Position numbers and translations under genes: made by a program | Notes under the pieces: model-generated | What the model was told of the DNA's origin: nothing | The model's input: only the letters and a program-made list of their open reading frames with translations | The model's database searches: none | Assembly (NCBI GenBank): GCA_009885995.1 | Contig: VFJQ01000023.1 | Span: 62,001-126,000, forward strand | Reading direction: 5' to 3' | DNA from: Verrucomicrobiota bacterium | GTDB taxonomy: Bacteria; Verrucomicrobiota; Verrucomicrobiia; Chthoniobacterales; Chthoniobacteraceae | DNA length: 64,000 nucleotides | In this document: positions 36,858-41,453 of the stretch, in pieces | Layout: every line of letters starts with the position of its first letter | Position numbering within the stretch: the stretch's first letter is position 1

Positions 36858-39800
36858 TTGAACGCAAGTCCGCGCCATCCAAAAGCCCGAGCCTTCGCCA
36901 CGAAGCAACTGCTCGCGGGAGTCACCGCGTTTGCAGAATTTGAGAGGCGCGTCGGGGCGCTCCCGACTCCAGATGAGAGAGGTGCGGCGTTCGACGTATT
37001 TGCTGAGTGCTGGCTGGCGACACAGCGGATTCCGCAGGCACGGAACGTCTGGCCGGGCAACACCGCGCCGCTTGCGCTCCTGCAAAAGCTCCGCCTTCCG
37101 ATTAAGGACATGGGCGTCGATGGTGTGTTCGAGACCGCTGCGGAGGAAGCGACATGCTACCAGGTGAAATTCCGCACGGGGCGGCCATCACTAACTTGGA
37201 CAGAACTCTCGACGTTCTTCGGCCTTTCGGATGTTGGATGCGGACGTCTTGTCTTTACGAATTGCGATGAGATCGCGGCAGTGGCCGAAGATCGCCCAGG
37301 AGTTGTGATCGTTCGTGGCAGTGACCTCGATCGCCTGACATCAGACGACTTCCGCGTCATGGAAGCGTGGCTCTCTGGCGCAGTCATCCAGCGCGAACCG
37401 AAAACACCGCGATCGCATCAGGAGGCAGCTATTGCAGATATCGTGAGAGTGCTGGGGCGAAACTCCCGCGCGACTGCACTCATGGCGTGCGGCTCGGGAA
37501 AGACCTTGATCGCCTTGTGGGTGGCAGAGCATCTCGGTGCTCGCACCGTGCTCGTCCTGCTTCCGTCATTGGCATTGGTCAGACAGACGCTCCACGAATG
37601 GCTTCGCGAAACGAACTGGCCGGAAATCGAATACTGCTGCGTTTGCTCTGATCCAACCGTGCGACCCGAGGAAGACGCGCTCGTCGTTCGCCAGACTGAC
37701 CTCGATTTCCGCGTGACGACCGAGAGCGCGTCGGTGCGGCGCTTTCTTGAGCGAACTACGCCGGCAGTGAGGATCGTCTTCTCCACTTACCATTCGAGTG
37801 CGGTGGTAGCCGAAGGCTCTGTCGGTTTGGCGCCATTCGATCTCGGCATCTTCGATGAGGCGCACAAGACCGCCGGGCGCGACGGGATGAAGTTCGCGCT
37901 GGCCCTGAGAGACGAGCAACTGCCGATCACGCGGCGGCTGTTCCTCACCGCCACACCGCGGCACTACAACGTCGCGGCGAAGGACAAATCTGGCGACGCG
38001 AAGGTCGTCTTTTCGATGGATGCGCCGGAGGTCTATGGCCCCGTCGCGCATCGGCTGCCGTTCAGCACGGCGGCGAGGCTGGGCATCATCACCGACTACA
38101 AGGTGGTGATCTCGATTGTGACTTCCGAGATGGTGACGGACGAATTGCTCCGGCGCGGTGTCGTCCTCGTCGCGGGCGAGGAAATCAAAGCGCGGCAGGT
38201 CGCCAATCAACTCGCGCTGCGCTCGGCCATCGAGCGCTACGGTGTGCGCAAGGTCTTCACCTTTCACTCGAAAGTCGCTGCGGCGAAGTCGTTCGTCTCC
38301 GCCGGATCGGAGGGCATCGCCACACACCTGCCGGACTTTCACTGCGCGCATATCAACGGCGAGATGCCGACCGCTTATCGCGAGCGATTGATGAGGGAGT
38401 TTGAACGTGCGCCGCGCGGGATCGTGTCCAACGCGCGCTGCCTGACAGAAGGAGTCGATGTGCCTGCTGTGGACATGGTCGCATTCCTCAGTCCGCGCCG
38501 GAGTCTCGTGGACATCGTGCAAGCCACGGGCCGGGCGATGCGGCGCGTGGTGGGCAAGCAATTCGGCTACGTGCTCGTGCCACTCTACGTCGAGCAGGCG
38601 CGCGGCGAGACCGTCGAAGCGGCGGTGATGCGCAGCGATTTCGATGAAGTGTGGAATGTCCTCAGTCGGTTGCAGGAGCACGACGACCTGCTCGCGCAAA
38701 TCATCGCCGACATGCGCATCCAGCGTGGTCAGACCGACGGCTTCGACGACTCGCGCTTTCGCGAGCGCGTGCAAATCCTCGGCCCGTCCATCTCGCTGGA
38801 AAAGCTACGCCAGTCCATCACCGCCGCGTGTCTCGATGCGATCGGCGAGTCGTGGTTCGAGCGCTATGGGCAACTCGTGGCGTATCACGAACGCCACGGC
38901 ACCTGCGACATGCCGCACCGGCTCGCGGAAAACAAACGATTGGCAACTTGGGTCATCAATCAGCGTGTTCTTCGGAAAGACGGTGTGTTATGTGACGAGA
39001 AAATCGCACTGCTTGATCGGATCGGTTTCAAGTGGTCACCGAAGGAGAGTGAATGGCGAACGAACTACCTCGATCTGCTGGCGTATCGAGAGCGATTCGG
39101 AAATTGCCGCGTGCCGCAGGAATGGAGGGAGAACAAAATCCTCGCGAAGTGGGTGGCTACGCAACGGGTTCGGCGGAAGCGGAAGCAACTAACCGCGGAG
39201 CGCATTGCGTTGTTGGACAAGGTGGGTTTCGAGTGGGCAGTCCTGTCGAAGAGCTGGCATGATCGTCTTGCAGAGTTGCGGGACTACAAAGCACAGCGCG
39301 GACACACTCGAGTTCCTGCAAGATGGGAGGAAAACCAACCGCTCGCGTCTTGGACGGTGGAGCAGCGCTTCCGAAAGCGGCGCAATAAGCTAACGGTGGA
39401 GCAAGTGCGGCTGCTTGATGAACTCGAATTCGAGTGGGAGCGGCCGGAAACGTCTGCGCATCGAGAGCATTGGAACGCAAAAATCGCCTCGCTAATCCGC
39501 TACAAAGCCGAGCATGGAGATTTCGCCATTCCGAGACGTGACAAGTTACATGGCACCCTCGCTCGATGGATGACCGAGGTTCGGCGAAAACGGAATTCCG
39601 GCAAGATTGACCCCGATCTCCAACAGGCTCTTGATGGGATCGGCTTTCCATGGATCGCGGAAAGCACAGCTAGCGAACCGCACTGGCTGAAGATGTTTGA
39701 TCGACTTCAGATGCATATTGCCGCAACCGGTTCGTGCCGCATCGGGCGATCCACAGCCGAACAGCAGCAGTTGGCCTCGTGGATTGTTCACCAACGAATG

Positions 39801-41453
39801 CTTCGGCGAACGGGAAAGCTGCTCGCGAAGCGCCAGCAGATGCTCGAATCCATCGGCTTCGAGTGGGAACCGCATCAGCGCGGCAAATACAAAGCCGCTT
39901 CCTTTCCGCACGATGCTGACCCTGCTCCGGGCAAATCATGGGAGGAGATGCACGCGATGCTCGCCGAGTTCTTCAAACTCCAAGGTCATTCCAACGTGCC
40001 GCCCGATTGGTCGGCCAACGCGGAGCTTGCCCGCTGGGTGCAAAGCCAGCGCAGCGCGAGAAAGCGCAACAAACTCACCGTCGAGCAAATTCGCCGGTTG
40101 GATGAATTGGGCTTCGCTTGGACCGCTCACGAAGCCGACTGGGACGCGATGTTTGAGGAGTTAGCCGCACTGCTGCGCGCACAGACGCGACCAGGCGGAG
40201 CAAGCCATCGCCCGAGCGCGGACTTGAAGCGATGGATGCTGACACAGCGGCAATTCAAGAAGCGCGGCGTCCTCGCGCCCGAACGCGAACGAAAGCTCGC
40301 GAGCATCGGTTTCGAGTGGGAGCCGTATACGAATCGCTGGGAGCAGATGTTCGCCGCATTGTGGGAGTTCCACGCCCGGCATCTGCACTGCCGCGTGCCG
40401 CTCGCTTGGCGCGAGAATCCGCGCCTCGGCCATTGGGTCGGTGTCCAGCGGCAGCGAATGAAGCGCGGACGACTTTCGCCCGATCGCGTCACGAAACTCG
40501 AAGCGCTCGGCTTCGAATGGCGGGTGAGGCCGACCGGCGGAAGCTCGCAGCCACAAGCATGGGAGACCATGTTCGCGGAACTGGAGCGCTTCCACGCCGA
40601 GAACGGACACGCGAATGTTCCCCAACAGTTTGCCGGCAATCGCAAACTCGGCTGGTGGGCCACGACGCAGCGTCGGAATCGCCGAAAAGACAAACTCACC
40701 GAGCAGCAAATCGTCCGACTCGACACTCTCGGCTTCGACTGGTCGCCACTCACTTCAACGCCGAAGCGGGCACAGCGCCTCCTGGTCACAGACCACGCAC
40801 CGCGGTCCGCACACCCGAGCGCGACGTGGGATGAAATGTTCGTTGCGCTTAAGGAATATAAGGCCCGTCACGGTAGTTGCACCGTGCTCCGGCGATCGAA
40901 GGAACACCTCAGACTGGCGCATTGGGTTATCGACCAGCGAATGGCGCATCATCGCGGCAAACTCAATCCCGACCGCGAGCGACAGCTCACAGAACTTGGC
41001 TTCGATTGGGATCCCATCAGTAACCGCTGGGACGAGATGTTTGCCACACTGGTCGCGTTCAAAAACGACCACGGCCACACCAACGTCCCGCAGAGATCAC
41101 GCCGCTACACGGAGTTGGCGACGTGGGTAAAGAACCAGCGACTCGCGGAAAAGATGAAGCGCCCAGTCATGATCGAGCGCCGCAAGCGCCTCGATGAACT
41201 CGGGTTTCATTGGATCGAGGACGGACCGACATGGGAGGACATGTTCGCGAGACTGGTCGCATTCAAGCAGACCAACGGTCATTGCAGCGTGCCTCAAAAC
41301 TGGCGTGAAGACCGCCGCCTCGGCAAATGGGCGAACACACAGCGGACTCAGCTCAAGCGTGGTAAAATAAAACTCCACCGGCAGCGCCAACTCGATGAGA
41401 TCGGTTTTGTTTGGAACGCCGGACCATCAAACGGCAAGCTTCGCGAGTCTTGA
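36858..41453 (+). CDS. Mrr-like nuclease domain + DEAD/DEAH superfamily 2 helicase + about 12 C-terminal helicase-associated (HA) repeats
   Basis: N-terminal GVDGVFETAAEEATCYQVKFR (PD-(D/E)xK-like); CGSGKT, IFDEAHKTAG, FLTATPRHY; then repeated W..M...L..F...HGH.NVP..W..N..L..W...QR...R.KL...R...LD.LGF.W units. Confidence 0.9.
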   Translation: MNASPRHPKARAFATKQLLAGVTAFAEFERRVGALPTPDERGAAFDVFAECWLATQRIPQARNVWPGNTAPLALLQKLRLPIKDMGVDGVFETAAEEATCYQVKFRTGRPSLTWTELSTFFGLSDVGCGRLVFTNCDEIAAVAEDRPGVVIVRGSDLDRLTSDDFRVMEAWLSGAVIQREPKTPRSHQEAAIADIVRVLGRNSRATALMACGSGKTLIALWVAEHLGARTVLVLLPSLALVRQTLHEWLRETNWPEIEYCCVCSDPTVRPEEDALVVRQTDLDFRVTTESASVRRFLERTTPAVRIVFSTYHSSAVVAEGSVGLAPFDLGIFDEAHKTAGRDGMKFALALRDEQLPITRRLFLTATPRHYNVAAKDKSGDAKVVFSMDAPEVYGPVAHRLPFSTAARLGIITDYKVVISIVTSEMVTDELLRRGVVLVAGEEIKARQVANQLALRSAIERYGVRKVFTFHSKVAAAKSFVSAGSEGIATHLPDFHCAHINGEMPTAYRERLMREFERAPRGIVSNARCLTEGVDVPAVDMVAFLSPRRSLVDIVQATGRAMRRVVGKQFGYVLVPLYVEQARGETVEAAVMRSDFDEVWNVLSRLQEHDDLLAQIIADMRIQRGQTDGFDDSRFRERVQILGPSISLEKLRQSITAACLDAIGESWFERYGQLVAYHERHGTCDMPHRLAENKRLATWVINQRVLRKDGVLCDEKIALLDRIGFKWSPKESEWRTNYLDLLAYRERFGNCRVPQEWRENKILAKWVATQRVRRKRKQLTAERIALLDKVGFEWAVLSKSWHDRLAELRDYKAQRGHTRVPARWEENQPLASWTVEQRFRKRRNKLTVEQVRLLDELEFEWERPETSAHREHWNAKIASLIRYKAEHGDFAIPRRDKLHGTLARWMTEVRRKRNSGKIDPDLQQALDGIGFPWIAESTASEPHWLKMFDRLQMHIAATGSCRIGRSTAEQQQLASWIVHQRMLRRTGKLLAKRQQMLESIGFEWEPHQRGKYKAASFPHDADPAPGKSWEEMHAMLAEFFKLQGHSNVPPDWSANAELARWVQSQRSARKRNKLTVEQIRRLDELGFAWTAHEADWDAMFEELAALLRAQTRPGGASHRPSADLKRWMLTQRQFKKRGVLAPERERKLASIGFEWEPYTNRWEQMFAALWEFHARHLHCRVPLAWRENPRLGHWVGVQRQRMKRGRLSPDRVTKLEALGFEWRVRPTGGSSQPQAWETMFAELERFHAENGHANVPQQFAGNRKLGWWATTQRRNRRKDKLTEQQIVRLDTLGFDWSPLTSTPKRAQRLLVTDHAPRSAHPSATWDEMFVALKEYKARHGSCTVLRRSKEHLRLAHWVIDQRMAHHRGKLNPDRERQLTELGFDWDPISNRWDEMFATLVAFKNDHGHTNVPQRSRRYTELATWVKNQRLAEKMKRPVMIERRKRLDELGFHWIEDGPTWEDMFARLVAFKQTNGHCSVPQNWREDRRLGKWANTQRTQLKRGKIKLHRQRQLDEIGFVWNAGPSNGKLRES

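What the first reader, a model, noticed from the sequence alone, without database searches (positions are those of the whole stretch)
36858..41453. Very long nuclease-helicase with about 12 helicase-associated repeats: candidate defence or element-control protein
Seen: Mrr/PD-(D/E)xK-like N-terminus (GVDG...YQVKF), SF2 helicase core (CGSGKT, DEAH, TATP), then about 12 divergent modules of 60-85 aa each ending GF.W. Established: the HA domain (PF03457) follows some SF2 helicases; its function is poorly defined. Inference: the repeat tail is a modular nucleic-acid reader coupled to translocation and cleavage, plausibly an anti-MGE system. It sits next to a TA pair and a broken gene copy.
Basis: partly seen in the sequence, partly recalled or inferred. 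Interest (0 to 1): 0.8.

Follow-up and report, generated by a model that had tools for sequence, protein, structure and literature searches.

The report
Restriction-like motor with swappable repeat tail
A bacterial protein joins the DNA-cutting engine of a known class of anti-virus enzymes to a tail of 12 repeats that relatives keep swapping, lengthening and shortening while the engine barely changes, which suggests that the tail chooses the target and that the enzyme needs no built-in self-protecting partner.

Summary
36858-41453 (+) is one 1531-aa gene with an Mrr-like nuclease, an SF2 ATPase and exactly 12 HA (PF03457) modules. Sequence and predicted fold place the first ~640 aa as the nuclease-ATPase of Type ISP restriction-modification enzymes (LlaBIII, Foldseek E 5e-37). 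The methyltransferase and target-recognition domain of those enzymes are absent, and the HA array stands in their place.

The main new result is evolutionary. Relatives whose motors are 89-97% identical often differ in module number (2 to 13 in the family) and carry largely dissimilar arrays. Silent sites jump at the motor/array border, so arrays are exchanged by recombination. Nuclease-less HA helicases of Streptomyces linear plasmids do this far less. Eight HA columns, seven of them in one loop and on one face of helix 2, differ between modules but are kept between corresponding modules, as expected of ligand-reading residues.

The gene is rare, patchily spread across phyla and has no partner gene. 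Homologs are not concentrated in defence islands.

Best reading: a Type-ISP-derived, stand-alone, methyltransferase-less restriction-like nuclease whose specificity lies in a swappable HA array. Target binding, cleavage and defence are inferred, not shown.

The parts
36858..41453 (+). Single gene, 1531 aa: Mrr-like nuclease - SF2 ATPase - 12 HA modules
   Evidence: the homolog P0001 has the same start and 94-96% identity in the front end
36858..37382 (+). N-terminal helical region and Mrr-like nuclease (aa 1-175); D88 of GVDG and Q102-x-K104 of CYQVKF are the predicted active site (nt 37113-37172)
   Evidence: alignment to LlaBIII; motif residues invariant in a 27-sequence alignment; fold match to 4xqk
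37404..38777 (+). SF2 helicase-like ATPase (aa 183-640): Walker A ACGSGKT (nt 37485), DEAH (37854), TATP (37947), QATGRAMR (38520)
38847..39029 (+). HA module 1
39045..39230 (+). HA module 2
39249..39431 (+). HA module 3
39459..39647 (+). HA module 4 (fastest diverging: 46% identity to a homolog whose front end is 95% identical)
39681..39860 (+). HA module 5
39933..40115 (+). HA module 6; reader-column residues here: N1046, P1049, W1051, N1054, R1059, Q1062, S1066
40128..40313 (+). HA module 7 (lowest Pfam score, 35.7 bits)
40332..40514 (+). HA module 8
40551..40736 (+). HA module 9
40818..41003 (+). HA module 10
41022..41207 (+). HA module 11
41229..41408 (+). HA module 12
35768..36214 (-). 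Neighbour, probably not part of the system: PIN-family toxin
   Evidence: PF13470, TIGR00305
36215..36469 (-). Neighbour: probable antitoxin, 84 aa (MTFDIPSDV...); the longer ORF 36215-36766 overlaps the broken gene copy and is probably mis-started
   Evidence: sequence; no family hit
36547..36749 (+). Neighbour: copy of the 3' end of the haem-binding gene 31779-35732, 85% identical; scar of a rearrangement
   Evidence: blastn and tblastn

Best explanation
A stand-alone, restriction-like enzyme against incoming DNA, derived from Type ISP enzymes. Proposed cycle: (1) the HA array binds a particular DNA feature, most likely a sequence read cooperatively by several modules through the loop before helix 2 and one face of helix 2; (2) binding starts the SF2 ATPase, which moves along double-stranded DNA; (3) the Mrr-like nuclease nicks when motors meet or stall, as in LlaGI and LlaBIII; (4) the host is spared because the site is absent from or rare in its genome, or because two sites in the right orientation are needed, not because a dedicated methyltransferase marks it; (5) specificity changes by exchanging, adding or losing HA modules. 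Shown here: the architecture, the kinship and fold of the front end, conservation of active-site motifs, absence of the MTase/TRD, array exchange and patchy spread. Inferred: DNA binding by HA, translocation, cleavage, self-sparing and defence.
For: Front end: PADLOC best hits are Type ISP-like enzymes over aa 62-623; PDB best is LlaBIII, E 7e-52; Foldseek best is 4xqk, E 5e-37, TM 0.76, the next unrelated fold being 3e-15. GVD...QxK is kept in homologs. Array: the first HA starts near aa 660 across the family; 45 intact genes from many phyla hold 2-13 modules, and 14 of 18 pairs with front ends at least 85% identical differ in module number. Front ends 88-90% identical carry unrelated arrays (L041/L055/L051). 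dS is higher in the array than in the front of the same gene pair (0.24 v 1.01; 0.75 v 2.39), and fourfold-site divergence is significantly higher in the array in 11 of 13 pairs, which points to exchange, not only fast drift. The array stays under purifying selection (dN/dS 0.13-0.41). Control: nuclease-less Streptomyces HA helicases with front ends 95-99.5% identical keep arrays at 89% (minimum 81), against 73% (minimum 39) here. Reader columns 25, 28, 30, 33, 38, 41, 45 recur in 49-60 of 60 half-samples. Spread: a rare gene mixed across phyla on the front-end tree. No partner and no linked MTase. Gene GC 60% against 65% for the window.
Against: No direct evidence of DNA binding or cleavage. 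Homologs are not in defence islands. Some intact members have only 2-3 modules, too few for a long, rare site. The host genome has several unlinked N6-adenine MTases, so protection in trans is possible. Many homologs are MAG contigs, where binning errors can mimic transfer.
Confidence: 0.55

Rival explanations
1. Modification-dependent (Type IV-like) enzyme: the HA array recognises modified or otherwise odd phage DNA, and the host is spared because it lacks that modification.
For: [quoted passage not shown] A solved Type IV enzyme, SauUSI, also has an SF2 motor and appears lower in the fold matches (7clg).
Against: Readers of a few modified bases need not be long arrays that change length and sequence this fast; no SRA, YTH or similar modified-base domain was found.
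Confidence: 0.17
2. DNA-transfer or replicon-maintenance factor, as proposed for TtrA of Streptomyces linear replicons, with the nuclease used to process or resolve DNA ends.
For: The same helicase-HA core occurs about 550 bp from the ends of Streptomyces linear plasmids, transcribed inward, as described for ttrA, a putative helicase needed for SLP2 conjugation (PMC8743542). It is also common on Pseudomonas megaplasmids.
Against: Those relatives lack the nuclease or, in one Rhodococcus plasmid protein, carry it with degenerate motifs; the Streptomyces arrays are far more stable; the armed family shows no recurrent transfer-gene neighbours.
Confidence: 0.13
3. The array is only a weakly constrained, non-specific DNA clamp; its variation is neutral repeat turnover and carries no specificity.
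For: Most variable columns are ordinary surface positions, and ortholog mismatch follows overall entropy closely (r 0.86). Tandem repeats turn over by slippage; in L049/L097 all modules resemble each other.
Against: Purifying selection, near-invariant core residues, silent-site jumps that need exchange with diverged donors, the much lower array divergence in Streptomyces relatives, and the clustered module-specific columns.
Confidence: 0.12

Closest known systems
Type ISP restriction-modification enzymes (LlaBIII 4xqk, LlaGI 5ffj)
   Same: N-terminal Mrr-like nuclease with GVD...QxK, SF2 ATPase, same order, same fold
   Different: No methyltransferase-TRD unit; 12 HA modules instead; no self-methylation in the same chain
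HA-domain (PF03457) helicases, including the ttrA-position genes of Streptomyces linear plasmids and Pseudomonas megaplasmid helicases
   Same: SF2 helicase followed by HA modules
   Different: They lack the nuclease (Pseudomonas, Streptomyces) or have degenerate motifs (Rhodococcus L154); 3-6 modules scored by Pfam; the Streptomyces arrays are stable
Type I specificity subunits and other TRDs
   Same: Conserved motor joined to a highly variable, exchangeable recognition part (compare PMC12707154)
   Different: Unrelated fold; a tandem array of up to 13 modules instead of one or two TRDs; no modification function
Type IV restriction enzymes such as SauUSI and McrBC
   Same: Solitary restriction without a partner methyltransferase, NTP-driven
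   Different: No known modified-base reader; Mrr-like front of the Type ISP sort

Membership tests
Type ISP restriction-modification enzyme | N-terminal Mrr-family nuclease | tested here: met
Type ISP restriction-modification enzyme | SF2 helicase-like ATPase directly after the nuclease | tested here: met
Type ISP restriction-modification enzyme | All-helical coupler | tested here: inconclusive
   aa 586-660 are predicted mostly helical and the LlaBIII alignment ends near aa 615
Type ISP restriction-modification enzyme | Gamma-class N6-adenine methyltransferase in the same chain | tested here: not met
   No methyltransferase family found by Pfam or NCBIfam
Type ISP restriction-modification enzyme | C-terminal ISP-type TRD | tested here: not met
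   HA modules from aa 664 to 1517
HA-domain helicase (PF03457) | SF2 helicase with HA modules over Pfam's cut-off | tested here: met
   12 of 12 modules over the cut-off
TtrA-like telomere-proximal helicase | Near the end of a linear replicon, no nuclease, stable array | tested here: not met
   Interior of a contig, has the nuclease, variable array
[quoted passage not shown]
   Needs biochemistry
Defence-island system | Homologs enriched beside known defence genes | tested here: not met
   124 neighbours scanned: scattered hits, no recurrent defence partner, mostly housekeeping Pfams; no matched control set was run

The most novel reading that the evidence does not exclude
HA modules form a DNA-reading array in which loop columns 25, 28, 30, 33 and helix-2 columns 38, 41, 45 set the specificity of each module, giving sites long enough that no protective methyltransferase is needed. 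New specificities would arise by exchanging modules: a natural, re-targetable, methylation-free restriction enzyme.
Probability: 0.27. Interest if true: 0.9.

Novelty: new variant of a known kind. Interest (0 to 1): 0.63.

Why it matters
HA domains are widespread, and no tested role for them turned up in my limited literature search. This family offers a direct test: a well-understood Type ISP motor fused to arrays that nature has swapped between near-identical motors. If the arrays set specificity, the family would be restriction without modification and possibly a new modular DNA-binding scaffold. It would also give a reason to look at why plasmids and phages carry nuclease-less relatives.

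Tried and rejected
Conserved partner gene: none; the largest recurrent neighbour clusters are generic families. Linked methyltransferase: only 2 of 812 neighbouring ORFs passed a crude motif test. Empty-site test using PolX and the haem gene in relatives: the gene order around this locus is not conserved, so no empty site could be defined. Nuclease domain alone against plasmids: no match, but this single-sequence search also missed known plasmid Type ISP enzymes, so it is not used as evidence of absence. Fold search with four HA modules: no significant match; only 2kta, itself an HA domain, was plausible (probability 0.90), and pTM 0.37 says the relative placement of modules is not predicted. 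A two-residue code visible by eye: not found; ortholog mismatch mostly follows entropy, and the signal appears only as a residual. Literature searches for PF03457 with restriction or helicase returned nothing relevant.
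Full report
What is there. The gene at 36858-41453 (+) encodes 1531 aa in one open frame. Pfam recognises 12 HA domains, ResIII and Helicase_C. All 12 HA hits of the genome fall in this one gene, each over the curated cut-off. The close homolog P0001 starts at the same residue.

The front end is a Type ISP motor. By sequence the best solved relatives are LlaBIII (4xqk) and LlaGI (5ffj). The alignment runs through the nuclease motif (GVDG...CYQVKF against GVDL...AIQAKF) and through the ATPase. PADLOC also ranks Type ISP-like models first, over aa 62-623 only. 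A structure predicted from 27 sequences (mean pLDDT 82, pTM 0.85) matches 4xqk at E 5e-37 with TM 0.76, far ahead of XPB and RadD at about 1e-14 to 1e-15. Type ISP enzymes carry nuclease, ATPase, coupler, N6-adenine methyltransferase and TRD in one chain; they translocate after recognising an unmodified site and cut when two motors converge (PMC4872093, PMC4666363, PMC7049714). Here the methyltransferase and TRD are missing and the HA array follows the ATPase. The protein is therefore not a Type ISP enzyme by membership, but it should work like one up to the question of what starts the motor.

The array is exchanged between near-identical motors. In close relatives the first HA starts near aa 660, while module number ranges from 9 to 13 in those of full length. 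Across 80 loci of many phyla I kept 45 genes with a proper stop, at least 300 bp beyond it and no HA remnants downstream: these hold 2 to 13 modules, and 14 of 18 pairs with front ends at least 85% identical differ in number. Homolog P0001 is 94-96% identical in the front end but 46-88% in the modules, module 4 being the lowest. L029 and L030 share 97% of the front end but have 13 and 10 modules. L041, L051 and L055 share 88-90% of the front end and have arrays no more alike than unrelated modules.

Silent sites show that this is exchange and not only fast drift. For L029/L030 dS is 0.24 in the front and 1.01 in the array; for L041/L055 it is 0.75 and 2.39. Along L041/L055, fourfold-site divergence is 0.21-0.25 in the two blocks before about aa 700 and 0.6-1.0 in most later blocks, although those hold few comparable sites. 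Over 13 pairs the array has significantly higher fourfold-site divergence in 11 (Fisher p 1.4e-2 to 5.6e-12); L071/L101 and L080/L084 are not significant. These values are conditional on codons whose first two bases are shared. Within arrays dN/dS is 0.13-0.41, above the front end but below 1, so the arrays are maintained.

A control. The same helicase-HA core without a nuclease occurs about 550 bp from the ends of Streptomyces linear plasmids, transcribed inward. That is the position and orientation described for ttrA, a putative helicase required for SLP2 conjugation (PMC8743542); I did not compare with the ttrA sequence itself. In this branch, front ends 95-99.5% identical keep arrays at a median 89% (minimum 81). 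In the armed family the same bin gives a median 73% (minimum 39) and frequent changes in module number, although that comparison includes some possibly truncated metagenome proteins. High array turnover is thus not a property of HA domains in general.

Candidate reading positions. Four modules are predicted as three-helix units with good local confidence (pLDDT 82.5) and no fixed relative placement (pTM 0.37). In 403 non-redundant modules I compared how variable each column is overall with how often it differs between corresponding modules of different proteins. Many surface columns mutate freely (31, 51, 54, 58). Columns 3, 25, 28, 30, 33, 38, 41 and 45 are very variable between modules but kept between corresponding modules, recurring in 49-60 of 60 half-samples. 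Except for column 3 they form the helix-1/helix-2 loop and one face of helix 2, next to the near-invariant W39, Q43 and R44. Their residues are mostly N, Q, R, S, T and K, with W or Y at column 30. In the smaller independent subset columns 25, 30, 33 and 41 recur, 28 and 38 are weak and 45 does not. This is the pattern of ligand-specific residues; module-module contacts would be an alternative cause.

Context. The front end reaches E<=1e-60 in 7 of 394 genomes of the phylum, and some of the weaker matches lack HA, while PolX next door is in 58 of 59 relatives. The front-end tree mixes phyla within supported clades, with the caution that many loci are MAG contigs. There is no recurrent neighbour, no methyltransferase or defence partner among the most frequent neighbour families and only 2 of 812 neighbouring ORFs with a crude methyltransferase motif. 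The genome does hold several unlinked MTases. On mobile elements the nuclease-less form dominates what I examined: Pseudomonas megaplasmids, Streptomyces plasmids and most viral contigs. A Rhodococcus plasmid protein keeps an Mrr-like domain, but QxK, the Walker lysine and DEAH are all changed. One viral contig (L160) has a related full-length front end with GADG...YQSKF and six HA modules.

Interpretation. The best reading is a solitary, methyltransferase-less, restriction-like enzyme: the array recognises DNA, the ATPase translocates and the nuclease cuts. Kinship, architecture, exchange and rarity are shown; binding, translocation, cutting and defence are inferred. Self-sparing is the open point. 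A long, rare site is the simplest answer for arrays of about 12 modules, but it does not explain intact members with 2-3 modules. A need for two sites, modification dependence, or protection in trans remain possible. Lack of defence-island enrichment lowers the defence claim without excluding it, since the gene has no partner and appears in varied surroundings.

Noticed in passing
36547-36749 (+): The 3' end of the haem-binding gene 31779-35732 is repeated at 85% identity just before the nuclease-helicase gene, with the PIN TA pair between the two copies: the scar of an old recombination or insertion.
   Followed up: partly
36215-36766 (-): The long antitoxin-side ORF overlaps the broken gene copy; the likely antitoxin is the last 84 aa (36215-36469).
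   Followed up: partly
L154:5512-8478: A Rhodococcus plasmid HA protein keeps a Type-ISP-like Mrr domain and motor, but QxK, Walker lysine and DEAH are all changed: a possible catalytically dead decoy or regulator.
   Followed up: partly
L162-L164, L167-L169, L172-L175, L177: Viral contigs encode HA helicases with 3-5 modules and no detected nuclease motif; a counter-defence or transfer role is worth testing.
   Followed up: partly
L153, L165, L166, L171: Relatives with the same nuclease-helicase front end but neither detected HA modules nor a methyltransferase motif: other C-terminal readers on the same motor.
   Followed up: no
L039, L042, L044, L050, L070, L095, L098: HA remnants directly downstream of the stop: arrays broken by stops or frameshifts, a sign of decay.
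   Followed up: partly
L026 (Listeria phage LM 4-14-1 record): An unverified 'phage' contig carries a Type ISP-like restriction enzyme with an NPPY motif; it looks like a bacterial or plasmid contig.
   Followed up: no
L062 and L079: A Scalindua MAG and an 'Alphaproteobacteria' MAG share the same downstream neighbours; one bin is probably mislabelled.
   Followed up: no
L049 and L097: In Elusimicrobia the modules of the two arrays all resemble one another (49-73%), unlike the divergent modules elsewhere: recent tandem expansion.
   Followed up: no
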